From Gammaproteobacteria bacterium 45_16_T64 (GTDB lineage: Bacteria; Pseudomonadota; Gammaproteobacteria; Pseudomonadales; Ketobacteraceae): 64,000 bases of DNA. The translations under genes and the position numbers were made by a program. The notes under the pieces were generated by a model, which was not told the origin of the DNA, made no database searches, and worked only from the letters and a program-made list of their open reading frames with translations. Positions 39,527 to 64,000 of this stretch are shown here, piece after piece. Position 1 is the stretch's first letter; every line of letters starts with the position of its first letter. The DNA is taken from NCBI GenBank assembly GCA_002162955.1, contig MABD01000043.1:1-64000 (forward strand), read 5' to 3'.

Positions 39527-39560
39527 CGTGAGTGCATTCATCACAATGGAGGATGGTTTG

Positions 39561-40172: not shown

Positions 40173-40183
40173 GTTCAATAAAG

Positions 40184-42441: not shown

Positions 42442-42450
42442 GTATTAACT

Positions 42451-43728: not shown

Positions 43729-43739
43729 TTTCTAAATTT

Positions 43740-44891: not shown

Positions 44892-46402
44892 ATCGTATGT
44901 TCAGTAGATTTGGTTTGGCGGTAAATGTAAATAAACCGGCACTTATAATTCTCTTATGGTGTGCCGTTTGGGCGGGGGTATATTATGAGGGTATTGCTTC
45001 GGCTGTTAGTGTCTGGGTAACTCATGATGCGTTTAATCACTGTTTGTTTGTTTTGCCTATCGCTCTGTATTTTGCGTACGAGCGAAGATACTCTGTGATG
45101 ATGGTCGAGCCCAAGTTTACCCCAGTCTTTTTGATCCCGATGTTTGCGCTGCAAGGCTTGTGGTTGGTCGGGTTTGCTGCCGATATTTCTTTATTTCAGC
45201 ACGCGGCTATATTTATTATGATTCCATGTGCTATTTCTATGTGTTTCGGGTGGAAGGTAGTTCGAGTGCTTTGGTTTTCGCTTTGTTTTGTGGTTTTTGC
45301 GATCCCCGTCGGTGAGCAGTTGGTGCCAGCGTTTCAAGTGATTACTGCGGATCTGTCCGTATTGTTTCTGCGTTGGTCTGGTGTGCCCGTGTATCATGAT
45401 GGATTGTTTATTACTATACCCGAAGGTGTATTTGAGGTCGCTGAGGCCTGCTCTGGCATTCGTTTTTTCATTGCCTGTGTTGTAATGGGAAGCATTATCG
45501 CTTACGTGAATTATCAGAGTGCTTACAAGAGAATTGCTTTTTTACTCTTTTCAATATTTCTTCCGATAATTGCTAATGGTTTGAGAGCATACGGTACGAT
45601 ATTGGTAGGCCATTTAATTGATCTTAAATACGCATCAGCAGCCGATCATCTGATTTATGGGTGGGGTTTTTTTGCTTTTATTATAATGTTGCTGGTGTTG
45701 TTTTCTCGTATTGGCGCTGAACCGGTCAGTCCTTTGTCGAAACCTGTGCACGATAAGACACACCCAGCTTGGCTAAATATGAAAGTGGTACCAATAGTTA
45801 GTATCATGTGTCTGCCTGTCATCTTGGCATTTGTTGTATCGCTGGGTGCTGCAAGGGGGGCGTTGCCAGTATCTTTGAAGGCAGATGTAACAGTGGGGGC
45901 CGAGGTTGAATTGGTAAGCTTTAATGGAAGCTGGAGGCCATCATTCATTTCACCTGAGCAAGAGTACTTTGCCCATGGTTCAAAAGAAGAAGATTATTAT
46001 GTGGCGGTTTATGATGGCGGTTTAGATACGGAGATGGTATCTGATGAGAATCGTTTGTACGACATTAAAAAGTGGCGATATATTGGGCAGGACACAAGAG
46101 AGGTTGCTTATGGCCAGGAAAGTGTCGTTGTTGCTTTGTTAAAGCTCGGAGCCAGTAACGGAGCAAAACGTTTGGTGATGTATTGGTATTATGTTCCCAA
46201 TTTGTCTTCGAGTAATGTGGTTAGTATTAAGTTAATGCAGGCATTGAATGTGTTGCAAGGCAAGGGTGGGGTTGGTGCGGTTATCGCAATCTCTAAACCT
46301 TATATGTTGGATTCGAGTGAAGTAGAGCCTGAGCTTTTGGCGCTAGTTTCTGAAAAAGCAGGTAGATTGGAAGGCATGGTTGATTTCTCGACTGGCCAGT
46401 AG
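44888..46402 (+). CDS. xrtA: Exosortase A with fused EpsI domain
   Basis: A 504-residue protein: a transmembrane exosortase (~1-280, about eight helices) fused to a soluble EpsI/DUF3485 domain (~305-500). The catalytic triad expected of exosortases is visible: C188 in EVAEACSGIRFF, R233 in NGLRAYGTI and H254 in SAADHLIYGWGFF. Exosortase A recognises C-terminal PEP-CTERM signals on exported proteins, cleaves after them and probably transfers the protein to the polysaccharide or the surface. Its neighbours are all typical XrtA-locus genes. No PEP-CTERM substrate protein was found in this window, so substrates must lie elsewhere. Confidence 0.95.
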   Translation: MNRMFSRFGLAVNVNKPALIILLWCAVWAGVYYEGIASAVSVWVTHDAFNHCLFVLPIALYFAYERRYSVMMVEPKFTPVFLIPMFALQGLWLVGFAADISLFQHAAIFIMIPCAISMCFGWKVVRVLWFSLCFVVFAIPVGEQLVPAFQVITADLSVLFLRWSGVPVYHDGLFITIPEGVFEVAEACSGIRFFIACVVMGSIIAYVNYQSAYKRIAFLLFSIFLPIIANGLRAYGTILVGHLIDLKYASAADHLIYGWGFFAFIIMLLVLFSRIGAEPVSPLSKPVHDKTHPAWLNMKVVPIVSIMCLPVILAFVVSLGAARGALPVSLKADVTVGAEVELVSFNGSWRPSFISPEQEYFAHGSKEEDYYVAVYDGGLDTEMVSDENRLYDIKKWRYIGQDTREVAYGQESVVVALLKLGASNGAKRLVMYWYYVPNLSSSNVVSIKLMQALNVLQGKGGVGAVIAISKPYMLDSSEVEPELLALVSEKAGRLEGMVDFSTGQ

Positions 46403-46421
46403 GGTGTGTTTTAGTAACGTG

Positions 46422-47258
46422 ATGAATAAAATGAAAAATGCAATGACCATCGATGTGGAAGATTACTTTCAAGTATCCGCATTTGAGAACAAATTTAATT
46501 CTAGTGACTGGGATGATATAGCCCCAAGAGTTGAAGCAAACACGAATCGATTGCTTGATTTATTTGCAGAGAAGGATGCCAAGGCAACATTTTTTACCTT
46601 GGGCTGGGTCGCACAACGATTCCCCGATCTGATAAAAAGAATTGCTCGAGAAGGGCATGAGGTGGCCAGTCACGGGACTATGCACAAGAGGGCAACGGAT
46701 CAATCGCGTTCCGAATTCAAGGCTGATGTGGGGGATGCGAAAAGGTTGCTAGAAGATATTGTCGGGGAGCCAGTTGTAGGTTATCGAGCGCCTAGTTTTT
46801 CTTTTACCAAGGATAATCAATGGGTGTACGAGGTGTTGAGTGAAGAGGGCTATAAGTATAGTTCGAGTATTTATCCTGTCGTACACGATCATTATGGGAT
46901 ACCTGATGCCCCCAGGTTTCGTTACGAAACAGAGTCGGGTGTTGACGAAATCCCTCTGAGTACACTGACTGTGCTCGGCAAAAACATTCCGATCTCCGGT
47001 GGCGGGTACTTTCGGCTATATCCATATATGTTCTCTCGGTATGCAATTCAGCTTTTTAAAGCAAAGGATCAAGAGCCCTACATTTTTTACTTGCATCCTT
47101 GGGAAGTGGACGCCAAGCAGCCGCGTGTTGAGGGGGTGTCTGCGAAAACTCGTTTTCGACATTATATCAATTTAAAGCGTGTAGAAAGCCGATTAAGTCA
47201 GTTGCTTACGGATTTTGAATGGTCGAGCATGGCGGATATCTATGGGTATGAGGGTTAG
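46422..47258 (+). CDS. XrtA-system polysaccharide deacetylase (TIGR03006)
   Basis: A ~278-residue NodB-type deacetylase that removes N- or O-acetyl groups from the exopolysaccharide. Motifs: MTIDVEDYFQVSAFE (catalytic Asp pair), EGHEVASHGTMHKRA (HxxxH metal ligands), YRAPSFSF and FYLHPWEVDAKQP, followed by the DUF3473 tail. Starting at ATG 46422 avoids a 23-base overlap with the exosortase gene; ATG 46431 and 46443 are also possible. Confidence 0.92.
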   Translation: MNKMKNAMTIDVEDYFQVSAFENKFNSSDWDDIAPRVEANTNRLLDLFAEKDAKATFFTLGWVAQRFPDLIKRIAREGHEVASHGTMHKRATDQSRSEFKADVGDAKRLLEDIVGEPVVGYRAPSFSFTKDNQWVYEVLSEEGYKYSSSIYPVVHDHYGIPDAPRFRYETESGVDEIPLSTLTVLGKNIPISGGGYFRLYPYMFSRYAIQLFKAKDQEPYIFYLHPWEVDAKQPRVEGVSAKTRFRHYINLKRVESRLSQLLTDFEWSSMADIYGYEG

Positions 47259-47298
47259 TATGCTAGTGCAAATACAGAATTTTGGGGAGTGCTTGTAA

Positions 47299-48546
47299 AT
47301 GGAGCCCATTCTATTTTTAACGCACAGAATACCTTTTCCGCCAAATAAAGGGGATAAGATTCGCTCCTTTAATATCCTCAAGTGGTTGTCGAAACACTAT
47401 GAGGTACATTTAGGTTGTTTTGTTGATGACGTCGATGATCGTAAATATGTTTCGGAGTTAGGCAAGTATTGTAAATCTTATAAAGCGGTTAATCTTAATC
47501 CTATGTTGAGTAAGGTTAAGTCTCTAAAGGCGCTGTTTTTTGGGAAACCCTTGACTCTCCCATATTATGAATCTGAGGAGTTGCGGCGGTGGGTTGAGAG
47601 CACTATAGGTGAGCACGATATAGAGTTATCCTTGATGTTTTCTTCATCGATGGCTCAGTATTTAGAATCCCAATGCTACGGCGTGAATCAACGCGTCTTG
47701 GACATGATTGATGTGGATTCAGATAAATGGAAGCAGTATTCTGAGAAGGCCTCCTTTCCGATGTCTTGGGTATATAGCCGTGAGTTTCGTACGCTAGCGG
47801 AGTATGAGAAGAAGATTGTGTCCAAGTTTGATGCAGTTGCATTGGTTTCGCACGAAGAAGCGGAGTTACTTCGTTCAATGGTGGGGGGGGATCTCAAAAG
47901 AAAAGTTCACGATGTTTGTAATGGTGTGGACTCGGAATTCTTCGACCCACAAAACGAATATGAAAAACTAGGGTTACCGAAGAAAATGGTTTCTTTTACA
48001 GGGGTCATGGATTATTGGGCGAACGTAGAGTCGGTGGTATGGTTTTGTCGATATGTCTGGCCAGAGGTTGTTAAGAAGCATCCAGATGCGTGTTTCTATA
48101 TTGTGGGGACTAGTCCCAGTTCAGATGTGTTGGCATTGAATGATGGGGTAAATGTAGTTGTAACCGGTAGGGTTAGCGACGTGCGTCCTTATATAGAATC
48201 TTCAAGTGTGGTTGTTGCCCCCCTTCGTATTGCAAGGGGGGTTCAAAACAAGGTGCTGGAAGCACTTTCTATGGAGAAGGCGGTGTTTGGCACTTCAATG
48301 GCGTTTGAGGGTATTGATTATACTGGGCATGAATTGGATATCTTGATCGAAGATAACGAGGCTAACTTTTCGGAAGCGCTAATTAGTCAGTTTGACCTCG
48401 ACAAGCAAAATACGAAGGCTTCTGTTAGTAAGAGGAATAGAGATTTTGTTATCGGTAATTATAATTGGAATGCAAAACTCAACGCATTGCAGCCTCTGCT
48501 TCAGCGCGACATTAAACTTGGTTATGTAGGAGGGGATGCTAAATGA
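47299..48546 (+). CDS. XrtA-system glycosyltransferase (TIGR03087, GT4-like)
   Basis: A 415-residue cytoplasmic GT-B transferase. The N-terminal motif [18 protein letters not shown] is the signature of the TIGR03087 sugar transferase group tied to exosortase A loci. The C-terminal nucleotide-sugar domain has [42 protein letters not shown] and a GT4-like [22 protein letters not shown], where the glutamate is positioned for donor binding. This is the only dedicated non-initiating glycosyltransferase of the locus. The stop overlaps the manC ATG. Confidence 0.92.
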
Positions 48547-49955
48547 TTTTGCCCGTAATTATGGCTGGCGGATCGGGAAGTCGGCTATGGCCAATGTCTC
48601 GATCGCTTTATCCTAAGCAATTTTTACCTTTGGGTGGGGGAGCTGAAAGCAACTCGTCTATGCTACAGGTTACGCTAGAGCGCTTATCAGGGTTGTCTGT
48701 TGATGCCCCGATTACTATATGCAATGAAGAGCATCGATTTATCGTTGCAGAGCAATTAAGAAGGGCTGGGTGTTCAGGTAATATAATATTGGAGCCGGTT
48801 GGGAGAAATACAGCACCGGCGATTGCGCTTGCTGCAGGGGTGGCCTCTTCCAGCGAGAACGATCCATTGCTACTGGTGCTGGCAGCTGATCATATGATTC
48901 AAGACCAGGAGGCATTTACGGCTTCTATTAATAAAGCGATACCGATTGCAGAAGAGGGCAAGTTGGTGACATTTGGTATCGTGCCTACGGAACCTCATTG
49001 TGGGTACGGTTACATACGTCGAGGTGGTGCAGTAGGGGACGGTTTTGTGGTCTCTGAGTTTGTCGAAAAGCCTAGCCTAGAGACAGCTAAAAAATATGTT
49101 AATTCCCAAGATTATTATTGGAATAGTGGGATGTTCTTATTTAGAGCAAGTCGATTTCTCGATGAGCTTGGTACGCACAGGCCGGACATAGCGCTCGCTT
49201 GTGAAAGAGCGCTTGGGAAAACATCCAAAGATCTGGATTTTATTAGGGTCGATAAGGATGAATTTATGGGGTGTCCAGATGAATCTGTCGACTATGCCGT
49301 AATGGAAAAAACTCAAGATGCGGTGGTAGTGCCAATGGATGCCGGATGGAATGATATTGGTTCTTGGTCGGCGTTATGGGATGTGGCAGAAAAAGACAGT
49401 GATGGCAATGCTGTTGAGGGCGATACAATATTACATGACAGCAAGGGCTGTTATGTAAATAGTAAAGAGCGATTGGTTGCAGTTGTAGGATTGGAAGATG
49501 TTGTCGTCGTTGATACTAAAGATGCAGTGCTTGTGGCCGCTAAAGATCGCGTTCAAGACGTCAAAAAAATAGTGGAAGAGCTCAAGTCCGCTGGTCGGGA
49601 TGAGTGTCGTTTGCATAGAGAAGTGTACAGGCCGTGGGGTAAGTATGATTCTATTAATAGCGGCGAACGGTATCAGGTAAAAAGAATTACAGTAAACCCT
49701 GGTGCTAAATTGAGTGTTCAGATGCATCATCATCGTGCTGAGCATTGGGTTGTGGTTTCCGGTACCGCAAAAGTGACCAACGGAAAAAAAACCTTCTTGG
49801 TGACTGAAAATGAATCTACTTATATTCCCGTTGGCGTTGTTCACGCGTTAGAGAATCCGGGGAAAGTGCCGCTAGAGCTGATTGAAGTGCAATCAGGGTC
49901 GTATCTAGGTGAGGATGATATAGTTAGATTCGAAGATAAGTATGGTCGGGCGTAA
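48543..49955 (+). CDS. manC: Mannose-1-phosphate guanylyltransferase / mannose-6-phosphate isomerase
   Basis: A 470-residue bifunctional enzyme making GDP-mannose. The N-terminal nucleotidyltransferase has [25 protein letters not shown] and the [14 protein letters not shown] segment. The C-terminal type II PMI cupin has [20 protein letters not shown], the metal-binding [14 protein letters not shown] and [14 protein letters not shown]. The length and the fused PMI domain match ManC/AlgA/CpsB proteins. It supplies mannose (or GDP-mannose-derived sugars) to the exopolysaccharide together with manB, which starts right after it. Confidence 0.95.
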
Positions 49956-49956
49956 T

Positions 49957-51339
49957 ATGAAAAATCTAAAGTGTTTTAAGGCATATGATATTCGCGGGCA
50001 GCTGGAAACGGAATTGAACGAAGATGTGGCTTATCGAATTGGTAGATCGTTTGGTGAGTATCTATCGCCCAAAGAAGTTGTAGTTGGTGGTGATGTTCGC
50101 GCTACATCAGAAGCGTTGAAAGCAGCCTTGTCGGATGGGTTGCGAGATTCAGGGGTTGATGTTGTCGATATTGGGATGGTGGGTACAGAAGAGATTTATT
50201 TCGCAACATCGTACCTAAATGTGGATGGAGGTGTTGAGGTAACTGCTTCGCACAATCCGATCGATTATAACGGCATGAAGCTCGTTAGAGAGTCAAGTAA
50301 GCCTATATCAGGAGATACCGGCCTAAAGGATATTCAGCGCCTTGCTGAGAATAATGAATTTGCTGCTGTAGACCCTGGTGCTCGAGGTGGCTATAGAGAG
50401 GTTTCAATACTGGAAGCCTACGTGGATCATTTACTTAGTTATATCGATGTCTCGAAATTGACACCACTTAAATTGGTAGTGAATTCTGGGAATGGGGCCG
50501 CCGGACATGTTGTTGATGAGCTTGAACGAAAGTTCAAAGAGCTGGAAGTGCCGATAGAATTTGTCAAGGTAAACCATGAGCCCAATGCGACGTTTCCGAA
50601 CGGAATTCCTAACCCGTTGCTGCCAGAGAATAGGGATAGCACTGCGTCAGTAGTTAAAAGTAGTGGTGCCGATATGGGTATCGCTTGGGATGGAGATTTC
50701 GATCGTTGTTTTTTGTTTGATGAGAATGGCGAATTTATTGAGGGCTATTATATTGTCGGGTTGCTAGCGGACGCATTCCTTAAGAAGCAGGCCGGCGCTA
50801 AGATTATTCACGATCCAAGGTTAACTTGGAATACTGAGGATATTGCCTTGTCTGGAGGTGGGGTGCCTGTGATGTCTAAGACTGGACATGCATTTATCAA
50901 AGAAAGAATGCGGAAAGAAGATGCAGTGTACGGTGGTGAAATGAGTGCGCATCATTACTTTCGGGATTTTTTCTATTGTGATAGTGGCATGATTCCTTGG
51001 ATGCTGGTGGCGGGTCTTATTTGTGAAAATAGGGCGGCATTATCCTCTATGGTTAAGGAGAGGATAGCGTTGTTTCCATCATCAGGGGAAATTAATTCCA
51101 GGCTAGACGATCCAGAAGCGTCTATTGCGCGAGTTCGTGCTCACTATAGTGGTCACGCGGTAGCGTTTGACGCCACCGATGGGGTTAGTATGTCATTTGA
51201 TGATCAAGACGGCGAGTGGCGTTTTAACTTAAGGAGTTCTAATACCGAGCCTGTTGTGCGTTTAAACGTGGAATCAAAAGGTAATATATTTTTGATGAAG
51301 TCTAGGACTCAAGAGGTGTTAGCGTTGTTGAGAGCTTAG
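49957..51339 (+). CDS. manB: Phosphomannomutase (ManB/CpsG type)
   Basis: A 460-residue alpha-D-phosphohexomutase that converts mannose 6-phosphate to mannose 1-phosphate. Motifs: [20 protein letters not shown], phosphoserine loop [16 protein letters not shown], metal loop [29 protein letters not shown], and [12 protein letters not shown]. It is very close in layout to E. coli CpsG, whose start aligns with ATG 49957 ([14 protein letters not shown]); ATG 49942 would overlap manC. It is the last gene of the plus-strand operon and is followed by a terminator at 51352. Confidence 0.94.
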
Positions 51340-51351
51340 ATTTTCGCTGAG

Positions 51352-51393
51352 AAGGGTGCTGCCTAGTGCGGCGCCCTTGTTTTTACTATTTTT
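51352..51393 (+). terminator. Rho-independent terminator of the exopolysaccharide operon
   Basis: Arms AAGGGTGC (51352-51359) and GCGCCCTT (51371-51378) pair over 8 bp with one G-U. They are followed by GTTTTTACTATTTTT. The structure lies 13 bases after the manB stop and overlaps the 3' end of the convergent acyltransferase gene. Confidence 0.85.
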
Positions 51394-51959: not shown

Positions 51960-52005
51960 GGGATGTCTTGTTGCACCATTTGAGTAGTGTGATTGTATCT
52001 ACGGG

Positions 52006-53639: not shown

Positions 53640-56600
53640 ATGTCGGTTTTTTCGAACACAGGTTGGAAGGTAATTGTAGTTGCTATATTGCTTATGCAAT
53701 ACGCGACTCGTGTGAGTGCTGATGGAACAGTAGATGGTTTACCAATAGTAATGTGTGTGAACGCTGGTGGATCTGCATATTTGGATGGTAATTCAGTCCA
53801 ATTTGCAGCAGACGACTACTTCACTGGTGGTAATACTGCTTCTGCAGGTTACGATATTGAATCAACCACGGATGATTATCTTTATCAGACTGATCGCTGG
53901 GGGAATTTTTCCTACTCTTTTCCAGTGCCTTCTAGTGGCGACTATTCTATCCAGCTTTACTTTGCTGAAGTCTACTACGGGGCAACCGTAGCGGGTGGCG
54001 CGGGTTCTCGGGTATTCGATATATCAGTTGAAGGTCAGCTTAAAGAAGATAACTACGATATTAGTGTAGAAGTACCAGCGCTTACGCCGATAAAGAAGGT
54101 ATATACAACTAATGTATCCGATGGTCAGCTAAACCTCGATTTTGGGGTTGTTGCGGACTTCCCTAAGCTGTCTGCTGCATGTGTTTATAGTGGTATCAAT
54201 GCTTTAGACTCGGACAGTGATGGCACGCCTGATAGCCAAGATGCATTCCCTAATGACCCTACAGAAACACTCGATACGGATGGTGATGGAGTCGGTGATA
54301 ATGGTGATGCGTTCCCTAACGATCCCACTGAGTCTTCTGATATTGATAGTGATGGATTAGGAGATAATACCGACCCCGATCGTGATAATGATAACGTTAA
54401 TAATGACCTTGATGCGTTTCCTAATGATCCTACAGAGACAACCGATACAGATAGCGATGGTGTAGGCGATAATAGCGATCCGAATCCGTTGCTCCCTGAC
54501 TCCACATTAATTTCTTGTATTAACGCGGGTGGTGAAGAGTTTACACATTCGGATGGTCGCGTGTTCGGTGCAGACCAGCAATATAGTGGCGGTAACGCTG
54601 GCGTAACTAGTCATCAAATCGATGGTACTGAAGAAGATATACTGTTTGCGACAGAGCGTTGGAGAGACTTCTCTTACGCAATTCCTGCTGGAGCGACTGG
54701 TAAATATACAGTAGAGCTGTTTTTTGCAGAGATTTACTACAATGCAACGATTCAGTCGGGAGGCCCCGGATCTCGCGTTTTCGATATTCTCGTTGAGGGA
54801 GGAGTGGTCAGTGATAATTTCGATATCCTGTCTGAGGTTGCATCAAAGACTCCGCTAGAAAAACTGTATCCGGTTGATATCACTGATGGTGTTGCAGACA
54901 TATCTTTTGGGGTGGAGACGGATTGGCCAAAGTTATCTGGCGTTTGTCTTTATTCCGGTCTTAAAGTTTCTGATACTGATGGAGACGGCACGCCGGACAG
55001 TCAAGATGCATTCCCTACTGACCCTGCGGAGTCCGCAGACACTGATAACGATGGCGTTGGTGATAACGCTGATGCATTTCCTAATGATCCAGCTGAGACA
55101 GTAGATAGTGATGGTGATGGTGTTGGTGATAATGCCGATGTGTTCCCTAATGACGCTGCGGAATCTGCAGATACTGATAGCGATGGTGTTGGTGACAATG
55201 CTGATGCCTTCCCAAATGATCCTACTGAAATTACGGACTTAGATAATGACGGCATTGGTGATAACGCTGACCTTGACCGAGATAATGATACCGTTAATAA
55301 CGACCTAGACGCGTTCCCCAATGACCCTTCAGAGACAACGGACACCGATAATGACGGTGTAGGCGATAACAGTGATCCGAACCCGTTGCTTCCTGACTCT
55401 ACGTTAATTTCTTGTATTAATGCGGGTGGTAACGAATACATACATTCCGATGGACGTATTTTTAGCGCTGATCAATTGTTTACTGGTGGCAGTGCCGGTG
55501 TTACCAGTCATCAAATTGATGGAACCGAAAATGATGAGTTGTTTGCTAGTGAGCGTTGGAAGGACTTTTCTTATTCTATTCCGGCGGGAGCGGCTGGAAA
55601 GTACACTGTAGAATTACTATTTGCTGAGGTTTATTATCAGGCGACAACCGATTTGGGCGGCCCTGGTTCTCGTGTATTTGATATTCTTATTGAGGGTAAT
55701 GTAGTTGCTGATAATTTTGATATCCTAGCGGAAGTAGCGTCAAAGACGGCATTAGAAAAGCTCTATCCTTTAGATGTTGCTGATGGTGTTGTGGATATTG
55801 CCTTTGGGGTTGAAGCTGATTGGCCAAAATTATCTGCAGTTTGTCTCTACTCGGGTCTTAAAGTGCCTGATGCAGATAATGATGGTGTCCCAGATTCAAC
55901 TGATGCGTTCCCAAATGATCCAGCGGAGTCTGTGGATAGTGATAATGATGGCGTAGGTGATAATGCCGATGTGTTTCCTAATGACCCCGCGGAAACAAAA
56001 GATCTCGATAGTGATGGCACGGGTGATAACGCAGATTTAGACGTTGATGGCGATGGAGTTAATAATGATATTGATGCTATGCCTTTCGATGCTACTGAGT
56101 CAGCAGATACCGACGGTGACGGCTGGGGAGATAACTCAGATATCGATCCAAACTATCCGAATTACGAGCTTGTTTCTTGTGTGAATGCAGGTGGCTCAGC
56201 ATATTCAGCAAGTGGTGGTATTGCGTATGCTGCCGATGTTAATTTTAGCGGCGGTAACACTGCGACTGAGGCATTCGACATTAGTAACACGTTGGATGAC
56301 GTTTTGTATCAATCTGAGCGTTGGGGTGACTTCTCCTACAGTATTCCTGTAACAGATGTCCATACATACACTCTGGAGCTTCAATTCGCAGAGATATTCC
56401 ACGGCACCTCAAGTGCCTCAGGCGGCCCAGGCTCACGAGTATTTGATGTCGTAGTGGAAGGCCAGACTGTGCGAAGCGCTTTTGATATTCTTCAAAACAA
56501 TGCTGCGCAAGAAGCGGTCGTTGAGCAGGTGGTGCTAGATATCACGGATGGCGACATTGATGTGTCATTTAACATGGCGATTGATTGGCCCAAACTGTCC

Positions 56601-59600
56601 GCTTATTGTGTTTATAAGGGGTTAAAGCTCCCAGATCAGGATAATGACGGCACTCCTGACTCGTTTGACGCATTTCCTAATGATCCGACAGAGCAACAGG
56701 ATAGTGATAGTGATGGTGTTGGCGATAACGCAGATGCGTTCCCCAATGATCCTACTGAAAGTGCTGACCTAGATAATGACGGAACCGGTGACAACACTGA
56801 CACTGATAGGGATGGGGATGGTGTTGATAATGATGTCGACTTGTTCCCTTATGATCCTACTGAATCAGCAGATACAGATGGCGACGGTTTTGGGGACAAT
56901 AGCGATCCTCAGCCAACGGTACCTAATTTTGACCTAGTATCTTGCGTAAACGTAGGTGGGGCTGAATACACAGCGAGTAATGGTGCGGTATATTTAGCGG
57001 ACCAGTTCTTTGCAGGCGGTACCGCGGGAACCACGACGTTAGACATTACTGGCACTGTTGACGGCGCTATTTATCAATCTGAGCGCTGGGGAGAGTTTAG
57101 TTACGCTATTCCAGTCGCAGGTAACGACAACAAACCTTATACGGTTGAACTTAAATTTGCGGAGACTTATTATCAGGCGACTGTTGGCACTGGCGGTGTC
57201 GGGTCACGTATATTTGATGTGTCGCTTGAGGGGCAGTTGGTCGCCAATAACCTTGACATATACAGCAAAGTAGGTTCAAGCGCGGCGTACAATAAGACGT
57301 ACTTCACTAACACAAGTGATGGTGCAATTGATATTGTTCTTCAGAAAGAACAGGATTGGGCCACGTTGTCAGGTGTGTGTGTATACCTAGGTATAAAGCC
57401 GATTGATACTGATGATGATGGTGTTTCCGATAATCTAGATGCATTCCCAGAAGACCCCAATGAGTCTGCAGACTCAGATTTGGATGGCGTGGGTGATAAC
57501 GCCGATTTATTCCCGAATGATCCTAGTGAAACAACAGATCTAGATGGCGACGGAATTGGTGATAATTCTGACGATGACAGAGATGGTGATAGCTATCTAA
57601 ATGACGGCGACGCTTTCCCGAATGATCCTACCGAATGGGTAGACACTGATGGGGACTCAATTGGTGATAATTCTGATCCTGATCCTTTAGTGGCTGCACC
57701 TATTGTCTTGACGTGTATTAATGTGGGTGGCCCAGAATTTGTGTCGGGCTCCGGTCGTGTATATATTGGCGATCAGTATGGTATTGGTGGAACTACCAGT
57801 ACTAATACGTTGAATATTACAGATTCTGCAGATCCCGCGATCCATACGAGTCAGCGCTGGGGGGATTTTGTATATAACATTCCTGTTCAAAATAATGGAA
57901 TTTATACCATTGATCTTTATTTTGCTGAACCTTATTGGGGAGTAGAAACTGCAGGTGGGGCTGGGTCTAGGTTGTTTAATGTTCGCCTTGAGGACCGCCT
58001 GATTTTGGCTAATTATGATCAATCAGCGTTGTCTATTGGTGGAGAGGCTCACGAAACGTATGTGGTATCGGTTGTCGATGGCTTAATAAATCTCGAGTTC
58101 GATGGCATTAGGGATAATCCAAACCTATCTGCGGTTTGTGTTTCGGTAGGAAGTGGTGGTACTGACACTGATGGCGATGGGCTGCCAGATGATTATGATC
58201 AAATGCCGTTTGATGCATCTGAGCTAAACGATAGCGATTATGATGGCATTGGTGATAACGCAGACCCATTCCCTAATAATGCTGAGGAAACTCAGGATAG
58301 TGATGGCGATGGAGTTGGTGACAATGGTGATGTATTCCCACTTGATCCGGCTGAAACATCGGATCTAGATAATGATGGAATAGGAGATAACGCCGATACA
58401 GATCGTGATGGTGATGGCGTCCCAAATGGAGCTGATGCTTTCCCTGATGATTCGAGAGTGCACACAGATACTGATTCAGATGGAACAGGCGATGCGCGAG
58501 ATGCGGAGCCAAATAATCCGTTAGTATCACTTTATTCTGAGCAATTTTCTGTGAAGTTTGTGCAATCTGGAGCGCAAGTTAATAGCTTGGTTGCTGCTGA
58601 GCAGGTTATCGCTGACGCAGCTAATTTGGTGTCTCAAGATGTGCAGTCGGATGTCATAAATTATAAGGATGGTGGCTCATTAGAAGGCAAATACCCTGGT
58701 AGCGTTGAGTTTCCACTTCTATCTCCTGTGGTAATTGAAATTACTCGACAGTTTTATGTGTCAGAGTCAGATACGTATTCTTTCTTGCTACGTTCAGATG
58801 GTGGTATTAGTCTGACCGTTAATGGCCAAACTATAATACAAAAGACGGTTGCCCAAACCCAAGACGACTTGTACGGCATCATCAGTTTGACCCCAGGGTT
58901 GCACGATCTCAGGGTGGTGTATTATGAGACTGCGGCAGACTCAACGATTGAATTGATGGCTGCAAGAGGTGATGCGACAGCGTTATATTCTCATCCTAAT
59001 CATTTTGAATTGTTAACGGATAGAGTTGAGGTCGAGCTTCAGCCTTGGCCTACATTGCCTGCCCATATTGGTGGGGCGTGGGGTAATCCTATTCAATGGC
59101 CAGAGATTCCAGCGTCAGCTATTCAAATGCCGGACGGAAAGCTCCTTACCATGAGCGGGGGGGAAGACGACTGGTACATTGGGGATGGGACCATTGCTAG
59201 CGTATATGATCCAGCAACAGGAACCTTCGTTTCTCGTAACCACCTTGACCATAATATGTTCTGCTCCGGTATTTCTCAGCTAGAAAATGGCAATTTATTT
59301 ATGACAGGTGGTAATAATATTGTCGCTCAATCATCTGAGTTCGATATTAACAGCTTGGAGTGGATCACCCGCCCTGAGATGTTTTTCCCGCGTTGGTATC
59401 CTACGCAAATGACTATGCCAGATAACCGAGTGTTTACTACCTTCGCAAATGGCTCTGGAAATACATCTGAGGTGTACTCACCTGTAACAGACGAGTGGGT
59501 GCATACAACGGGTGCCAATATGCAAGGGATGCTAAATGATCATTCGATTATCAACACTTACCCACTGGGTAATGGCAGCACCGATATGCAATGGTATGGA

Positions 59601-62600
59601 TTTATGCACGTTGCACCTAACGGAAAAGTGTTCCAATCTGGACCTACGCAAACGATGCACTGGTTTACAGCTGACGGCCTTGGTACGACTGAAGTGCTGG
59701 GGCCTCGTCTGGGCGGTGATCAAGCGAGAATGTTTGGCTCTGCGGTAATGTACGATATAGGTAAGATTCTTGTGACAGGGGGTAATGATCACACCCTGGT
59801 CATTCCGTCGTCTGATACATCCATCACTGTTGAGTTAAATGGTGCAGTGCCTGTGGTTAAGGAAGGTAAGTCGATGCACTATCGTCGAACCTTCCAGAAT
59901 TCGGTTGTTCTACCTGATGGCAAGGTAATGGTTATCGGTGGTTCAACTGATGGTATATTGTTCAGCGATGACGGTACCGTAATGCAACCGGAAATGTGGG
60001 ATCCCGCGACAGGTGATTGGTCACTAATGAGTAGCCATTCGATACCACGTAATTACCATTCAACCGCGATTCTCATGAAGGATGCGACTGTGTTTTCTGG
60101 TGGTGGTGGTGCCTGTAATGGATGTGATGCTGATCACTCCGACGCACAATTCTATACGCCAGCATATTTGTTTAATATGGATGGAAGCTTAGCTCAAAGA
60201 CCGGTGATTTCATCTGGGCCGGCTTTGGCACAGGCAGGTGATGTATTAACTTTTGCTGCATCTGCTGGGGTATCAAAATTCAACATGATTCGATTGCAGG
60301 GAACTACGCACTCAATCAATACGGATCAACGCTTCGTACCTGTTGCATTTGAGGAGGTAGCTGGGGATTATCAGTTAACAATAAATTCAAATACGAACGT
60401 CATGATTCCAGGTTACTATTGGGTGTTTGCGCTGGACGCAAACGGTGTGCCTTCAGTTGGTCATACATTGCAAATTGTCCGTGACCCTTCTGGTATCGAT
60501 ACGGACGGTGATGGGATCCCAGATAACGAAGACCTATTCCCATTAGATCCTGCTGAAGGTACAGATCAGGATGGTGACGGCGTTGGCGATAACGGTGATG
60601 CTTTCCCTACTGATCCAAATGAGACTCAGGATTCTGATTTGGATGGCGTGGGCGATAATGCCGATGTGTTCCCTAATGACTCTGCGGAAACTGTTGATAG
60701 TGATGGTGATGGCTTTGGGGATAACCGCGATGTTTATCCAAATGATTCCACCCGCTTTACTAATGCAGCAACCGTTGTGCGTCATTCCATGCCAATCATC
60801 GTTGTCGAGGGTGGTGTAGAGGACTCAGTCTGGAACGTTAACCCTGACAATAATACAGTGGCTCGTTCGAATGCAGGCCTTACTACGGTGGCTGAGATTG
60901 CAGTAGGTAATCACCCCGCGACTTTAGTTATGTCTCCCGCTTCTTCTGAGGTGTTTGTTACTAATAAAGCAGATGCCACGATATCTGTTATCGATATGAC
61001 CTCGAATACAGTGACCAGAATGATTGCATTGCCAACGGCATCAAAGCCTCATGGTATTGTTGTTTCCTCTAATGGGTTGGTGTTGTACGTAGCTCTAGAG
61101 GCTGTAGGGCAGGTCGTGAGAATAGAAGCAACAACGGGTGTTGTTACTCATTCCGTTAGCCTAGGTGGAAATCTGCGTCATTTGGCGCTAACCGATGATG
61201 ACTCTACTGTTTATGTGACTAACTTCGTTACTCCTATGCTCAATGGTGAATCAACAGCAAATATTGATGTGGCTTCGGGTGGTGGTGAATTATACGCACT
61301 TAATGCTGCTACGTTGGCTATGGATAACAAGATTGAGCTGGGGTACTCCAACAGAGGCGTGACAGACGTTGCAGGGCCTGGTTTACCTAACTATCTTAAT
61401 GCACCTGTGCTAACCCCAAATGGTCAGACTGCCTATGTGCCGTCCAAACAGGATAATATCTTGGCGGGGGGATTGCGTGGTGGTACTGGCATGAACTTCG
61501 ATCAGACAGTGCGCGCAGTAACATCGATAGTGAATCTTCAGGCAAATACAGAGAATCCTGGAGCCAGAATTCATCACGACAACTCGAGTCTAGCTTCTGG
61601 CGCGGTATTTAGTGGTAATGGTCGGTACTTGTTTGTTGCCCTTGAGACTAGCCGTGAAGTGGCTGCATATGACATTCAAAGTGGCTTTGAGCTAACTCGA
61701 ATTGATGTAGGTATGGCCCCGCAGGGTGTTGCAACATCAACTGACGGAACGAGGCTTTATGTATACAACTTTATGGACAGAAGTGTACAGCAATTCGATT
61801 TAAGCCAATTGTTGTATGCGGCTTCTACTTCGGTGCCATTGCTATCTAGTGCATCGGTTGTCTCTTCAGAGCTTCTCAGTGCTGAGGTTAAGCTAGGCAA
61901 GCAGTTATTCTATGATGCTGCTGATGATCGCTTGGCTCTAGATAATTATATGAGTTGCGCGTCTTGCCACAATGAAGGCGGTGCTGATGGTCGAGTGTGG
62001 GATCTTACTGGTATGGGTGAGGGGTTGCGAAATACGATCAGTCTAGTCGGTAAAGGTCAAAATAACGGCATACTGCACTGGTCAGGCAACTTCGATGAAG
62101 TTCAAGATTTCGAGAACCAAATACGAAGCTTGGCGGGTGGAACAGGGTTGATGACCGATGTTGATTTTGCTGCAGCGGAGTCAACGCTAGGAACACCTAA
62201 AGCGGGTTTAAGTACAGACCTTGATGCAATGGCTGCATATTTAGCATCGCTAAGCACCATTGAAGCATCACCTGAGCGAAATGGCGCTTTGTCTACTCTG
62301 GCGACAGAGGGGCAGGCATTGTTCACAGCTGAAGGTTGTTCTACCTGTCATGCTGGTACGAGCTTGACGGATTCAGCGCTGGGTGCGAGGCATGATGTTG
62401 GCACTATTACTGCGGCATCTGGAAGCCGTCTTGCAGGAACGCTTGATGGGTTTGATACTCCTTCTCTGTATATGTTATGGGCTACGGCGCCATACCTACA
62501 CGACGCGTCTGCGAGCACCGTATCTGATGCGATTAATGCACATACAACGTTCACTTTGGATGCTTCGAAGGTTACTGCGCTGGAGCAGTTCTTGAAGGAG

Positions 62601-62621
62601 CTGCAACCCGGGGACTTGTAA
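53640..62621 (+). CDS. Giant exported malectin/TSP3/PA14/copper radical oxidase/di-heme peroxidase protein
   Basis: 2993 residues with a signal peptide (~1-27). Six malectin-like (CBM57-type) domains lie near 35-190, 289-443, 588-742, 842-997, 1097-1252 and 1355-1503. TSP3-type repeats (DSDGDGVGDNADAFPNDP pattern, Ca-binding) separate them. A PA14 domain (~1631-1784) follows, then a galactose-oxidase Kelch propeller plus DUF1929 (~1801-2283) with C1875 (NMFCSG), Y1920 (RWYPT), Y2139-H2140 (RNYHS) and H2224 (TTHSINTDQR). These match the Cys-Tyr cofactor and all copper ligands of galactose oxidase. More TSP3 repeats, a YVTN beta-propeller (~2378-2732) and a CCP/MauG-type cytochrome domain with CxxCH hemes at 2773-2777 and 2900-2904 complete it. 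There is no PEP-CTERM or other sorting tail. It probably binds glycans and oxidises sugar alcohols to aldehydes, with H2O2 formed and removed in cis (inference). Related: Streptomyces GlxA, a copper radical oxidase for glycan deposition. Confidence 0.9.
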   Translation: MSVFSNTGWKVIVVAILLMQYATRVSADGTVDGLPIVMCVNAGGSAYLDGNSVQFAADDYFTGGNTASAGYDIESTTDDYLYQTDRWGNFSYSFPVPSSGDYSIQLYFAEVYYGATVAGGAGSRVFDISVEGQLKEDNYDISVEVPALTPIKKVYTTNVSDGQLNLDFGVVADFPKLSAACVYSGINALDSDSDGTPDSQDAFPNDPTETLDTDGDGVGDNGDAFPNDPTESSDIDSDGLGDNTDPDRDNDNVNNDLDAFPNDPTETTDTDSDGVGDNSDPNPLLPDSTLISCINAGGEEFTHSDGRVFGADQQYSGGNAGVTSHQIDGTEEDILFATERWRDFSYAIPAGATGKYTVELFFAEIYYNATIQSGGPGSRVFDILVEGGVVSDNFDILSEVASKTPLEKLYPVDITDGVADISFGVETDWPKLSGVCLYSGLKVSDTDGDGTPDSQDAFPTDPAESADTDNDGVGDNADAFPNDPAETVDSDGDGVGDNADVFPNDAAESADTDSDGVGDNADAFPNDPTEITDLDNDGIGDNADLDRDNDTVNNDLDAFPNDPSETTDTDNDGVGDNSDPNPLLPDSTLISCINAGGNEYIHSDGRIFSADQLFTGGSAGVTSHQIDGTENDELFASERWKDFSYSIPAGAAGKYTVELLFAEVYYQATTDLGGPGSRVFDILIEGNVVADNFDILAEVASKTALEKLYPLDVADGVVDIAFGVEADWPKLSAVCLYSGLKVPDADNDGVPDSTDAFPNDPAESVDSDNDGVGDNADVFPNDPAETKDLDSDGTGDNADLDVDGDGVNNDIDAMPFDATESADTDGDGWGDNSDIDPNYPNYELVSCVNAGGSAYSASGGIAYAADVNFSGGNTATEAFDISNTLDDVLYQSERWGDFSYSIPVTDVHTYTLELQFAEIFHGTSSASGGPGSRVFDVVVEGQTVRSAFDILQNNAAQEAVVEQVVLDITDGDIDVSFNMAIDWPKLSAYCVYKGLKLPDQDNDGTPDSFDAFPNDPTEQQDSDSDGVGDNADAFPNDPTESADLDNDGTGDNTDTDRDGDGVDNDVDLFPYDPTESADTDGDGFGDNSDPQPTVPNFDLVSCVNVGGAEYTASNGAVYLADQFFAGGTAGTTTLDITGTVDGAIYQSERWGEFSYAIPVAGNDNKPYTVELKFAETYYQATVGTGGVGSRIFDVSLEGQLVANNLDIYSKVGSSAAYNKTYFTNTSDGAIDIVLQKEQDWATLSGVCVYLGIKPIDTDDDGVSDNLDAFPEDPNESADSDLDGVGDNADLFPNDPSETTDLDGDGIGDNSDDDRDGDSYLNDGDAFPNDPTEWVDTDGDSIGDNSDPDPLVAAPIVLTCINVGGPEFVSGSGRVYIGDQYGIGGTTSTNTLNITDSADPAIHTSQRWGDFVYNIPVQNNGIYTIDLYFAEPYWGVETAGGAGSRLFNVRLEDRLILANYDQSALSIGGEAHETYVVSVVDGLINLEFDGIRDNPNLSAVCVSVGSGGTDTDGDGLPDDYDQMPFDASELNDSDYDGIGDNADPFPNNAEETQDSDGDGVGDNGDVFPLDPAETSDLDNDGIGDNADTDRDGDGVPNGADAFPDDSRVHTDTDSDGTGDARDAEPNNPLVSLYSEQFSVKFVQSGAQVNSLVAAEQVIADAANLVSQDVQSDVINYKDGGSLEGKYPGSVEFPLLSPVVIEITRQFYVSESDTYSFLLRSDGGISLTVNGQTIIQKTVAQTQDDLYGIISLTPGLHDLRVVYYETAADSTIELMAARGDATALYSHPNHFELLTDRVEVELQPWPTLPAHIGGAWGNPIQWPEIPASAIQMPDGKLLTMSGGEDDWYIGDGTIASVYDPATGTFVSRNHLDHNMFCSGISQLENGNLFMTGGNNIVAQSSEFDINSLEWITRPEMFFPRWYPTQMTMPDNRVFTTFANGSGNTSEVYSPVTDEWVHTTGANMQGMLNDHSIINTYPLGNGSTDMQWYGFMHVAPNGKVFQSGPTQTMHWFTADGLGTTEVLGPRLGGDQARMFGSAVMYDIGKILVTGGNDHTLVIPSSDTSITVELNGAVPVVKEGKSMHYRRTFQNSVVLPDGKVMVIGGSTDGILFSDDGTVMQPEMWDPATGDWSLMSSHSIPRNYHSTAILMKDATVFSGGGGACNGCDADHSDAQFYTPAYLFNMDGSLAQRPVISSGPALAQAGDVLTFAASAGVSKFNMIRLQGTTHSINTDQRFVPVAFEEVAGDYQLTINSNTNVMIPGYYWVFALDANGVPSVGHTLQIVRDPSGIDTDGDGIPDNEDLFPLDPAEGTDQDGDGVGDNGDAFPTDPNETQDSDLDGVGDNADVFPNDSAETVDSDGDGFGDNRDVYPNDSTRFTNAATVVRHSMPIIVVEGGVEDSVWNVNPDNNTVARSNAGLTTVAEIAVGNHPATLVMSPASSEVFVTNKADATISVIDMTSNTVTRMIALPTASKPHGIVVSSNGLVLYVALEAVGQVVRIEATTGVVTHSVSLGGNLRHLALTDDDSTVYVTNFVTPMLNGESTANIDVASGGGELYALNAATLAMDNKIELGYSNRGVTDVAGPGLPNYLNAPVLTPNGQTAYVPSKQDNILAGGLRGGTGMNFDQTVRAVTSIVNLQANTENPGARIHHDNSSLASGAVFSGNGRYLFVALETSREVAAYDIQSGFELTRIDVGMAPQGVATSTDGTRLYVYNFMDRSVQQFDLSQLLYAASTSVPLLSSASVVSSELLSAEVKLGKQLFYDAADDRLALDNYMSCASCHNEGGADGRVWDLTGMGEGLRNTISLVGKGQNNGILHWSGNFDEVQDFENQIRSLAGGTGLMTDVDFAAAESTLGTPKAGLSTDLDAMAAYLASLSTIEASPERNGALSTLATEGQALFTAEGCSTCHAGTSLTDSALGARHDVGTITAASGSRLAGTLDGFDTPSLYMLWATAPYLHDASASTVSDAINAHTTFTLDASKVTALEQFLKELQPGDL
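54378..54968 (+). repeat. Duplicated TSP3-malectin unit, copy A
   Basis: A 591-base unit (residues ~247-443) that encodes the end of a TSP3 run, the linker NPLLPDSTLISCINAGG and malectin domain 2. Copy B at 55275-55865 has exactly the same length and aligns without gaps. The two differ mainly by point substitutions (for example INAGGEEF versus INAGGNEY), so this is a fairly recent in-frame duplication inside the giant gene. Confidence 0.85.
54969..55274 (+). repeat. TSP3 calcium-binding repeat array in coding DNA
   Basis: The most regular of the seven TSP3 arrays in the giant gene. In-frame repeats of the form T/SDxDGVGDNADAFPNDPxE follow each other, with Asp at the calcium-coordinating positions. 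Comparable arrays lie near 54196-54377, 55866-56162, 56631-56927, 57399-57701, 58150-58529 and 60499-60762. Tandem coding repeats of this kind are prone to copy-number change. Confidence 0.8.
55275..55865 (+). repeat. Duplicated TSP3-malectin unit, copy B
   Basis: Second copy of the 591-base unit (residues ~546-742), covering malectin domain 3. It begins 897 bases after copy A. The intervening TSP3 block between the units has expanded by extra DxDxDGxGDNADAFPNDP repeats. Confidence 0.85.
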
Positions 62622-62658
62622 ACCTTTTGGCGGCGGCACTCGCCGCATAAAAAAATAG

Positions 62659-62697
62659 AAAAGGCTAATATGTGTATGTACACTATTAGCCTTTTTT
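62659..62697 (+). terminator. Rho-independent terminator after the giant gene
   Basis: Arms AAAAGGCTAATA (62659-62670) and TATTAGCCTTTT (62684-62695) form a 12-bp stem whose loop can pair further (GTGTA/TACAC), followed by T residues. It lies 37 bases after the stop, so the downstream genes probably have their own promoter or rely on read-through. Confidence 0.88.
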
Positions 62698-62729
62698 GTT
62701 CCTGCGTAGGTTTTGTTAAGGGGGTTCCA

Positions 62730-63182
62730 ATGATCGTATTACCTATGCCTCTCGTCGTTATGAGGCCATATTTGACTGTTGTAATGGTGTTCGTGTGCTG
62801 GCTTCAAGGGGCGGGGGTGGTGAGTGCAGCAGGGGATTTAGGAGTCAGTTGGTCAGGAATGTCGAAGAGCGGAAAATATTTAGCGGTTTTACATTCTGAT
62901 TCCAATCCGGTAGCTATTGGGTCATTTTTGAGGTGGAAGGTATCAATCGAAGACACCCAAGGGAACAAAGTGAATGGCTTGTCTATCCGTGTTGTTGGTG
63001 GAATGCCTGGGCATAGACACGGAATGCCTTCATCGCCGAAAGTAACGCCTGGTGAGGGCACTGGTGAGTATTTGATCAAAGGGCTTAAATTCAGTATGGC
63101 GGGGGAGTGGGTTGTGGTTGTTCATTTTGAAAGTACTGAAATTAAAGATCAGGTTACGTTACCTATTATCTTAGAATACTAA
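62730..63182 (+). CDS. Small exported YtkA/FixH-like protein with His-Met motif
   Basis: A ~150-residue protein with an N-terminal hydrophobic signal (PYLTVVMVFVCWLQGAGVVSA) and a compact beta-sandwich domain (LRWKVSIEDTQGNKVNGLSI, TGEYLIKGLKFSMAGEWVVV) typical of YtkA-like domains. M92-P-G-H95-R-H97-G-M99-P is a plausible copper-binding loop. ATG 62730 is chosen because AAGGGGG lies upstream; the longer frame beginning at 62670 would start inside the terminator stem. It sits 11 bases before a cytochrome c peroxidase-type gene and after a copper radical oxidase gene, so a copper delivery or electron-transfer helper role is plausible (inference). Confidence 0.72.
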   Translation: MIVLPMPLVVMRPYLTVVMVFVCWLQGAGVVSAAGDLGVSWSGMSKSGKYLAVLHSDSNPVAIGSFLRWKVSIEDTQGNKVNGLSIRVVGGMPGHRHGMPSSPKVTPGEGTGEYLIKGLKFSMAGEWVVVVHFESTEIKDQVTLPIILEY

Positions 63183-63193
63183 AGGAATAGAGT

Positions 63194-64000
63194 ATGATTC
63201 TTTGTTGTCGTGTATTGATAGTGATTGCACTAGCGGTTGCCGTGAGTTTGGCAATGCCTTTGGGTAAGCATGCTGCTGCGGAGCCAGTAGTATTCGATCA
63301 ATATCAAATTTCGATCCTTCGTTCCCTGTCTAGTGAGGTGTTAGCGGAGATTGATGATCCTTCAAATAAATATATGACGGACCCATCGGCGATTGAACTT
63401 GGTAAGCACATTTTTAGAGATACCAGTCTTAGCAAGAATGGCAAGGTTTCTTGTGCGAAGTGCCACCAGGAAAGAAGGGCTTTTACTGACGGTCTGCCCA
63501 AGGCGTTCGGATTAGGGCTAACGGGTAGAAATACACCTTCGTTGAATGGTGTAGCTTATCAAGATTGGTTTTATTGGGATGGGCGTAGGGATTCATTGTG
63601 GTCTCAAGCGTTGGTGCCTTTTGAGGCTGACATTGAAATGGGAGTTGACCGAACTTTTGTGGTGCGGAAAGTGCTGCATAACAGCACATATCTTGGGCTT
63701 TACAAGCAAGCCTTTGGCGATGATTTCATTGGTAAGGGCGACTTTTGGCCAGCAAACGCGAGTCCATTCGGTAGTGACCTTACCAAAGCCAGCTGGAATG
63801 GGTTGAGCGAGCAACAGCGACAGAATATAAATCATGTTTTTTCTAACGTAGGTAAGTCGATCGCTGCGTATGAAGGCACTATAGGCTTTGTCCCTAGTCG
63901 GTTTGATACGTTTATATCTAGCCTTGAACAAGGCCAAATTAACACAAGCATTTTGTCAAAAAAGGAGTTGAAAGGCCTGAAGTTGTATATTGATGATAAG
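63194..64000 (+). CDS. Di-heme cytochrome c peroxidase / MauG-like protein, partial
   Basis: The frame is open from ATG 63194 to the window edge (269 codons), so the C-terminal part is missing. A signal peptide (VLIVIALAVAVSLAMPLGKHAAA) is followed by a CCP/MauG N-terminal domain: SAIELGKHIFRDTSLSKNGK, heme motif C87-A-K-C90-H91, RAFTDGLPKAFG, RNTPSLNGVAYQDWFYWDGR and SLWSQALVPFEADIEMG. The second heme site is expected beyond the window. GGAATAG precedes the ATG. It probably acts with the adjacent YtkA-like protein and the giant oxidase: H2O2 removal, electron transfer or oxidative maturation. Which of these it does is not decided by sequence. Confidence 0.9.
   Translation, partial: MILCCRVLIVIALAVAVSLAMPLGKHAAAEPVVFDQYQISILRSLSSEVLAEIDDPSNKYMTDPSAIELGKHIFRDTSLSKNGKVSCAKCHQERRAFTDGLPKAFGLGLTGRNTPSLNGVAYQDWFYWDGRRDSLWSQALVPFEADIEMGVDRTFVVRKVLHNSTYLGLYKQAFGDDFIGKGDFWPANASPFGSDLTKASWNGLSEQQRQNINHVFSNVGKSIAAYEGTIGFVPSRFDTFISSLEQGQINTSILSKKELKGLKLYIDDK

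What the first reader, a model, noticed from the sequence alone, without database searches (positions are those of the whole stretch)
53640..62621. One polypeptide joins an H2O2-forming copper radical oxidase to an H2O2-using di-heme peroxidase domain, on a multi-lectin arm
The galactose-oxidase module keeps every key residue (C1875, Y1920, Y2139, H2140, H2224). The same chain ends in a CCP/MauG-type domain with two CxxCH sites. Galactose oxidases make H2O2 and are activated by peroxidases or one-electron oxidants; CCP consumes H2O2 and MauG performs oxidative protein maturation. The fusion suggests either local peroxide disposal or self-activation of the copper radical, tied to glycan by six malectin domains and PA14. 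I know of no described system with this exact make-up.
Basis: partly seen in the sequence, partly recalled or inferred. Interest (0 to 1): 0.93.

Follow-up and report, generated by a model that had tools for sequence, protein, structure and literature searches.

The report
Copper oxidase fused to di-heme cytochrome
A giant bacterial protein, probably exported, joins a copper enzyme of a peroxide-making family to a two-heme module related to peroxidases and hydrazine synthase, and the same fusion recurs in dozens of other bacteria, often next to copper-delivery genes, but what it does is untested.

Summary
It is not a chance fusion: in 76 of the 80 best relatives kept (of 495 found) one frame holds oxidase and di-heme module, with copper residues in 73-74 of 74 aligned rows and heme motifs in 76 of 76. 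Propeller plus di-heme resembles the hydrazine synthase beta-gamma subunit more than a classical CCP or MauG: by alignment His2968 replaces the Met or Tyr ligand of the second heme, and the peroxidase Glu has no clear equivalent. Copper-assembly genes often adjoin the fusion (Sco in 28, YtkA in 15 of 76, never both); the window has YtkA plus a separate MauG/MbnH-type di-heme gene. Most likely it is a glycan-associated copper-radical oxidase with a built-in redox partner that uses its peroxide; the direction of electron flow is unproven. The nearest described system, Streptomyces GlxA-Sco-DtpA, uses separate proteins. Galactose as substrate is doubtful. Six literature searches listed no description of this fusion.

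The parts
53640..62621 (+). Giant fusion protein, 2993 aa, N-terminal hydrophobic stretch like a Sec signal peptide (by eye)
53751..58151 (+). Six malectin domains separated by TSP3-like DxDxDG repeats
   Evidence: Pfam; borders taken from the Cys pattern are approximate
58731..58946 (+). PA14-like domain (weak)
   Evidence: Pfam E 1.2e-6
59037..60485 (+). Copper-radical oxidase (AA5 / galactose-oxidase fold) with GO-like E-set
59262..59264 (+). Cys1875 of the Tyr-Cys cofactor
   Evidence: C in 73 of 74 aligned rows, Ala in 1
59397..59399 (+). Tyr1920 of the Tyr-Cys cofactor
   Evidence: 74 of 74
60054..60059 (+). Tyr2139-His2140, copper ligands
   Evidence: 74 of 74
60309..60311 (+). His2224, copper ligand
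   Evidence: 74 of 74
60486..60788 (+). TSP3-type linker, poorly predicted
   Evidence: sequence; pLDDT about 33-50 in most of it
60789..61844 (+). Seven-bladed YVTN propeller like hydrazine synthase beta
61845..62618 (+). Di-heme CCP-superfamily domain, by sequence near hydrazine synthase gamma and CCPs
61956..61970 (+). CXXCH heme motif 1 (CASCH, 2773-2777)
   Evidence: 76 of 76 rows
62337..62351 (+). CXXCH heme motif 2 (CSTCH, 2900-2904)
   Evidence: 76 of 76 rows
62541..62543 (+). His2968, proposed sixth ligand of the second heme
   Evidence: 80 of 80 fused rows; the profile aligns it with Met of 3o5c
62670..63182 (+). YtkA-like protein, probable copper-assembly factor, with a GGMPGHRHGMP motif; exact start unsure
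   Evidence: PF13115 5.2e-11; within 1.7 kb of the fusion in 15 of 76 relatives
63194..64000 (+). Separate MauG/MbnH-type di-heme enzyme, 412 aa, runs past the window end to L009:1833
   Evidence: PF03150 1.3e-36
38114..51339 (+). Exopolysaccharide cluster: sugar transferase, export protein, exosortase EpsH, GDP-mannose genes

Best explanation
The protein belongs to a widespread family of copper-radical alcohol/aldehyde oxidases that carry their own redox partner; I found no description of it. Copper is put in by a neighbouring assembly factor (YtkA here, Sco in others). The oxidase domain oxidises a glycan or a glycan-derived alcohol, probably in the cell's own exopolysaccharide, and makes H2O2 from O2. 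The C-terminal propeller plus di-heme module, built like the hydrazine synthase beta-gamma subunit, reacts with that peroxide at its first heme and exchanges electrons with a partner through its bis-His second heme. This removes peroxide at the source and may keep the copper site in its oxidised, active state. Shown here by computation: the fusion, conserved residues, folds of the oxidase and propeller, neighbours. Inferred: export, copper loading, peroxide use, electron direction, heme ligands, substrate, and that the downstream MauG-type enzyme helps maturation.
For: One frame holds oxidase and di-heme module in 76 of 80 loci, with copper residues in 73-74 of 74 rows and heme motifs in 76 of 76. 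The 80 fused di-heme domains form one side of a branch (SH-aLRT 99) against 13 relatives without oxidase, and one di-heme group is paired with two oxidase lineages. Sco occurs in 28 and YtkA in 15 of 76 fusion loci, none with both; 0 of 13 oxidase-less loci have either. The 28 Sco matches lie within 1.1 kb of the fusion and the 15 YtkA matches within 1.7 kb. In 9 loci a monoheme cytochrome c gene follows the fusion directly, and Sco follows it. All 16 YtkA loci of the 80 also have a MauG/MbnH-like enzyme, in one ORF with YtkA in 8. Folds. Glycan setting. Precedent: DtpA uses the H2O2 of GlxA and is needed for its maturation (PMC4736821); a fungal peroxidase activates a copper-radical oxidase, with EPR support (PMC9770985); in hydrazine synthase gamma the bis-His heme is proposed to take electrons from a cytochrome c (PMC12607021).
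Against: The fused domain has no clear equivalent of the Glu conserved in the partner enzyme (E148) and, as recalled, in CCPs; its likely bis-His second heme suggests a low potential, so peroxidase activity is not assured. The linker is poorly predicted, so Cu-heme contact is not shown. The propeller/di-heme module also occurs without the oxidase (13 of 93 rows), so its chemistry need not concern copper. Of 45 fusion loci with at least 3 kb on both sides, 12 have neither Sco nor YtkA. No monoheme cytochrome c lies near the window's fusion. DtpA did not boost GlxA turnover over horseradish peroxidase. Nothing biochemical was tested.
Confidence: 0.5

Rival explanations
1. Electron relay: the copper centre passes substrate electrons to the hemes and on to a cytochrome c, making a copper-radical dehydrogenase rather than an oxidase.
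For: Likely bis-His second heme, a common electron-transfer ligand set; a monoheme cytochrome c gene directly after the fusion in 9 loci, all of the Sco type; hydrazine synthase gamma is proposed to exchange electrons with a cytochrome c (PMC12607021).
Against: The copper-radical site of an O2-reducing family is complete; the long, poorly predicted linker does not suggest a fixed electron path; no monoheme cytochrome c is near the window's fusion.
Confidence: 0.2
2. Self-activation or maturation is the main role: the di-heme part (or the MauG-type partner) performs the one-electron oxidation that makes the Tyr radical or the Tyr-Cys bond.
For: Peroxidase activation of CorAlcOx with EPR support (PMC9770985); DtpA needed for GlxA maturation (PMC4736821); the partner has a MauG-like Tyr at the ligand position (Y378) and is in one ORF with YtkA in 8 loci; SCO1 and MauG genes, sometimes fused, beside methanethiol oxidase (PMC5739008).
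Against: The Tyr-Cys bond is recalled to form with copper and O2 alone; 58 of 76 fusion loci show no separate MauG-type gene, though many have short flanks; 14 oxidase-only rows in the tree do without the di-heme part.
Confidence: 0.2
3. No coupling: two unrelated functions tethered to the same matrix-binding protein.
For: The propeller/di-heme module occurs with other accessory parts (LVIVD repeats, laminin-G, ricin and F5/8 lectins, a cellulose-binding domain); poorly predicted, probably flexible linker.
Against: Fused di-heme domains form their own clade; 76 of 80 relatives keep both parts, though the 80 were picked by score over both parts.
Confidence: 0.1

Closest known systems
Streptomyces GlxA with Sco and the DyP peroxidase DtpA (glycan morphogenesis)
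   Same: Copper-radical oxidase, copper chaperone and heme partner serving an extracellular glycan
   Different: Separate proteins there and a DyP-type heme; here one chain with a c-type di-heme propeller module; YtkA plus a MauG-type gene instead of Sco in the window
Hydrazine synthase beta-gamma subunit (fused in Scalindua) and its environmental homologues
   Same: Seven-bladed propeller followed by a di-heme CCP-like domain; His at the second-heme ligand position (by alignment)
   Different: The window domain has only the four CXXCH cysteines, so no third heme cysteine; it is fused to a copper-radical oxidase; an alpha subunit was not searched for
Fungal copper-radical oxidase and peroxidase pairs (CorAlcOx-CorPerox)
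   Same: A peroxidase works with and activates a copper-radical oxidase
   Different: Two proteins, unrelated peroxidase family, plant-wax alcohols
MauG / MbnH / CorB-type di-heme enzymes beside copper proteins, including SCO1-MauG at methanethiol oxidase
   Same: The downstream gene L009:595-1833 is of this type, with WDGR, Gln, Glu-Met and a Tyr at the ligand position
   Different: The part scanned scores below the curated cut-offs of both NCBIfam models; the neighbour here is YtkA, and the adjacent possible target is a copper-radical oxidase

Membership tests
Copper-radical oxidase (AA5) | Kelch propeller plus E-set fold | tested here: met
Copper-radical oxidase (AA5) | Tyr-Cys cofactor residues and Tyr/His/His copper ligands | tested here: met
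Copper-radical oxidase (AA5) | Copper content and oxidase activity | not testable with these tools
   needs protein
Galactose oxidase (substrate sense) | Galactose-site residues (Trp290, Arg330, Gln406; recalled) | tested here: inconclusive
   the phmmer alignment to 9g8h (galactose complex) shows other residues at these places; positions recalled, alignment gappy there
Di-heme cytochrome c peroxidase / MauG (fused domain) | Two CXXCH in a CCP_MauG domain | tested here: met
Di-heme cytochrome c peroxidase / MauG (fused domain) | Met (CCP) or Tyr (MauG) as sixth ligand of the second heme (roles recalled) | tested here: not met
   His in 80 of 80 fused rows, by sequence alignment to 3o5c; not by coordinates
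Di-heme cytochrome c peroxidase / MauG (fused domain) | Active-site Glu (role recalled) | tested here: inconclusive
   not seen at the expected place by eye; other conserved acids nearby
Hydrazine synthase beta-gamma homologues (broad) | Propeller joined to a di-heme domain | tested here: met
Hydrazine synthase beta-gamma homologues (broad) | Bis-His second heme | tested here: inconclusive
   His at the place by alignment only; ligation needs a structure or spectra
Hydrazine synthase (narrow) | Third heme cysteine | tested here: not met
   only four cysteines in the window domain
Hydrazine synthase (narrow) | Alpha subunit encoded | not tested
   no search for it was made
MauG/MbnH type (downstream gene) | CCP_MauG domain, two CXXCH, Tyr at the second-heme ligand position | tested here: met
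   (Y378 in at least 93% of 17 rows)
MauG/MbnH type (downstream gene) | Score above the family cut-off | tested here: not met
   first 268 aa only (80.9 against 362.85 bits for MbnH; 74.1 against 443.85 for MauG), whole gene in two pieces, neither over the MbnH cut-off

The most novel reading that the evidence does not exclude
A self-cycling metalloenzyme: peroxide or electrons from a copper-radical site are handed within one chain to a hydrazine-synthase-like di-heme module that re-oxidises the copper centre and keeps its radical active, while a dedicated YtkA-MauG unit loads copper and makes the Tyr-Cys cofactor. It would be a built-in activation and maturation system for a protein-derived radical copper cofactor, spread over several bacterial phyla and used to remodel exopolysaccharide.
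Probability: 0.22. Interest if true: 0.9.

Novelty: new variant of a known kind. Interest (0 to 1): 0.72.

Why it matters
How copper-radical oxidases are switched on and protected from their own peroxide in nature is largely open; horseradish peroxidase is the usual laboratory additive (recalled). Here evolution has tied a heme module to the oxidase in one chain in many species, often with copper-assembly genes beside it, which makes the question directly testable. It also suggests a role for some of the many environmental homologues of the hydrazine synthase beta-gamma subunit, and gives a new set of bacterial AA5-like enzymes to assay.

Tried and rejected
Chance fusion or assembly error: rejected, 76 of 80 relatives. 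Of the other four, L071 (Marinobacter salarius) has the parts in three ORFs, the oxidase itself split (frameshift or decay; not mended), and in L085, L095 and L122 the ORF runs off a contig end with no oxidase held. Among the 76, L098, L107 and L126 hold only part of the oxidase (contig ends) and L115's di-heme part runs into a second ORF.

Fused domain as a plain CCP or MauG: weakened by the His and the missing Glu. YtkA-MauG unit everywhere: rejected, 15 of 76. Copper genes belonging to the di-heme module: not supported, 0 of 13 oxidase-less loci, some of them with short flanks; but only 4 of 15 oxidase-only loci have Sco, one (L183) weak and distant, so the link to the oxidase alone is modest. 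The Sco, YtkA, di-heme and cytochrome profiles were built from these same loci, so hit counts are not independent of the seeds. Pfam confirmed SCO1-SenC in 2 of 2 and YtkA in 1 of 2 relatives sent (the miss is the YtkA-MauG ORF L084); of four small CXXCH proteins sent it named one a cytochrome c (L096).

Fold search: propellers filled the Foldseek and VIA lists of the propeller/di-heme model, so structural neighbours of the di-heme part are untested; its likeness to hydrazine synthase gamma and CCPs rests on sequence. The viral-library search gave mainly propeller and WD-repeat proteins and was not informative. Literature searches for the fusion listed no paper describing it; listings were capped, and PMC12758564 has no occurrence of 'galactose oxidase'. 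Plasmids: 15 records match, 1 covers at least 80% of the query. The large genome searches scored at most two candidates per genome, so they undercount.

Full report
WHAT IS THERE. The ORF 53640-62621 (+) is open for 2993 codons. Pfam and NCBIfam give six malectins among TSP3 repeats, a weak PA14, a galactose-oxidase-type domain, a YVTN propeller and a di-heme CCP_MauG domain. Next on the same strand come a YtkA-like gene (62670-63182) and a 412-aa di-heme gene that starts at 63194 and ends outside the window. Upstream lies an exosortase-type exopolysaccharide cluster. The genome also has a type II secretin and CcmH, so c-type heme attachment and export are feasible.

IT IS A FAMILY. In 15 genomes of the window's family, two other proteins align over nearly the whole query at 40-42%; in 390 genomes of the order more appear. 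A scan of genome contigs with the seven-row alignment A1 matched 512 stretches, 495 of them relatives; the best 80 were kept, and all 80 were examined. In 76 of 80 one ORF holds oxidase, propeller and di-heme hits. Of these 76, 70 are Pseudomonadota by taxonomy, 2 Myxococcota, 1 each Planctomycetota, Chloroflexota and Verrucomicrobiota, and 1 is unplaced; the non-Pseudomonadota ones are MAG bins and could be binned wrongly. Among 74 aligned oxidase rows (73 plus the window) Cys1875 is kept in 73 (Ala in one) and the other four residues in 74; in 76 di-heme rows (75 plus the window) all six CXXCH positions are kept. Because the 80 were chosen by score over the whole fusion, this is not a frequency among all relatives. 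On plasmids 1 of 15 matching records covers at least 80% of the query.

TREES. On the oxidase tree (92 rows: 78 fused, 14 oxidase-only) at least four changes of state are needed, direction unknown. On the di-heme tree (93 rows) the 80 fused rows are one side of a branch with SH-aLRT 99, against 13 oxidase-less rows. Ten rows of the window-type oxidase clade group by their di-heme domain with the 27 rows of the other oxidase clade (SH-aLRT 92), as if the oxidase part had been exchanged. Both trees are quick searches without bootstrap.

NEIGHBOURS. By profiles seeded from these loci, Sco occurs in 28 and YtkA in 15 of 76 fusion loci, none with both. By matched-domain coordinates the 28 Sco matches lie within 1.1 kb of the fusion, on its strand; of the 15 YtkA matches 13 lie within 430 bases and two at 1.4 and 1.7 kb. 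With at least 3 kb held on both sides: 22 Sco, 11 YtkA, 12 neither, of 45. Controls: 0 of 13 oxidase-less and 4 of 15 oxidase-only loci. Fisher, fusion against oxidase-less: 1.6e-6 for the 45 and 9.8e-5 for all 76; rows are related, so these are guides. All 16 YtkA loci of the 80 (L071 included) also have a MauG/MbnH-like gene; L143 and, in part, L079 have one without YtkA. In 8 loci YtkA and the di-heme enzyme are one ORF. A monoheme cytochrome c profile hits 10 loci, all with Sco: in 9 the match begins within 81 bases of the fusion's end, ahead of Sco, and in L137 it lies 1.6 kb upstream; five of the nine were the seeds. Around the window's fusion (47001-64000 and L009:1-10000) no other ORF of 70 aa or more carries CXXCH. 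YtkA domains are implicated in copper-centre assembly in Bacillus (PMC13344008, passages); the other YtkA match in this genome is in a CusB-type efflux protein with a heavy-metal-binding domain. The genome has four other places matching TIGR04039, so such di-heme genes are not rare, but it has only two YtkA matches.

HOW IT MAY WORK. GlxA maturation needs Sco and the heme peroxidase DtpA when copper is limiting; DtpA uses its H2O2, without evidence of strong binding and without boosting activity over horseradish peroxidase (PMC4736821; abstract, section 3.3 and part of the discussion read). CorPerox activates CorAlcOx in a dose-dependent way, with EPR support (PMC9770985; one results section read). 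Methanethiol oxidase, a copper enzyme reported to make H2O2, has SCO1 and MauG genes beside it, sometimes fused (PMC5739008, passages); CorA and MopE are co-transcribed with a di-heme partner (PMC3912023, passages). I therefore favour a redox partnership in which the di-heme module uses the oxidase's peroxide. The His and the cytochrome c neighbours keep the relay model alive. The MbnH/MbnP kynurenine story and the residue roles in CCP, MauG and galactose oxidase are recalled.

SUBSTRATE. In the alignment to 9g8h, a galactose complex, the places of the recalled galactose-site residues differ, so 'galactose oxidase' should be read as a fold name. The glycan cluster and the malectins point to a polysaccharide; RmlD and flippase genes near the fusions of L065 and L066 agree, while the surroundings of L074 look unrelated to glycans by eye.

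Noticed in passing
L010:2804-7015 (own genome, contig C12): A 1403-aa propeller/di-heme protein without copper-oxidase domain, near an animal-type haem peroxidase with a crystallin domain (L010:1121-2746).
   Followed up: partly
L009:7908-9836: GMC-type oxidoreductase followed by a 114-aa protein with a Tat-like start (by eye), some 7 kb downstream of the fusion: possibly another alcohol or sugar dehydrogenase in the glycan cluster.
   Followed up: no
L009:3573-6167: 864-aa protein with no Pfam hit at 1e-4, beta-helix-like by eye.
   Followed up: no
L184:1909-3498 (own genome, contig C47): CusB-type efflux protein carrying an N-terminal YtkA domain and a heavy-metal-binding domain.
   Followed up: partly
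L092, L094, L098, L099, L125, L131, L133: A shared lipoprotein-like gene of unknown function near the fusion in Granulosicoccaceae (cluster).
   Followed up: no
L109:14854-15408 and L144:7728-8294: A second kind of CXXCH lipoprotein-like gene directly after the fusion, unlike the monoheme cytochrome of the Sco-type loci.
   Followed up: no
window 44888-46402: Exosortase EpsH joined to DUF3485, in the exopolysaccharide cluster.
   Followed up: no
window 23365-27333: DUF1631 joined to GGDEF and EAL domains.
   Followed up: no
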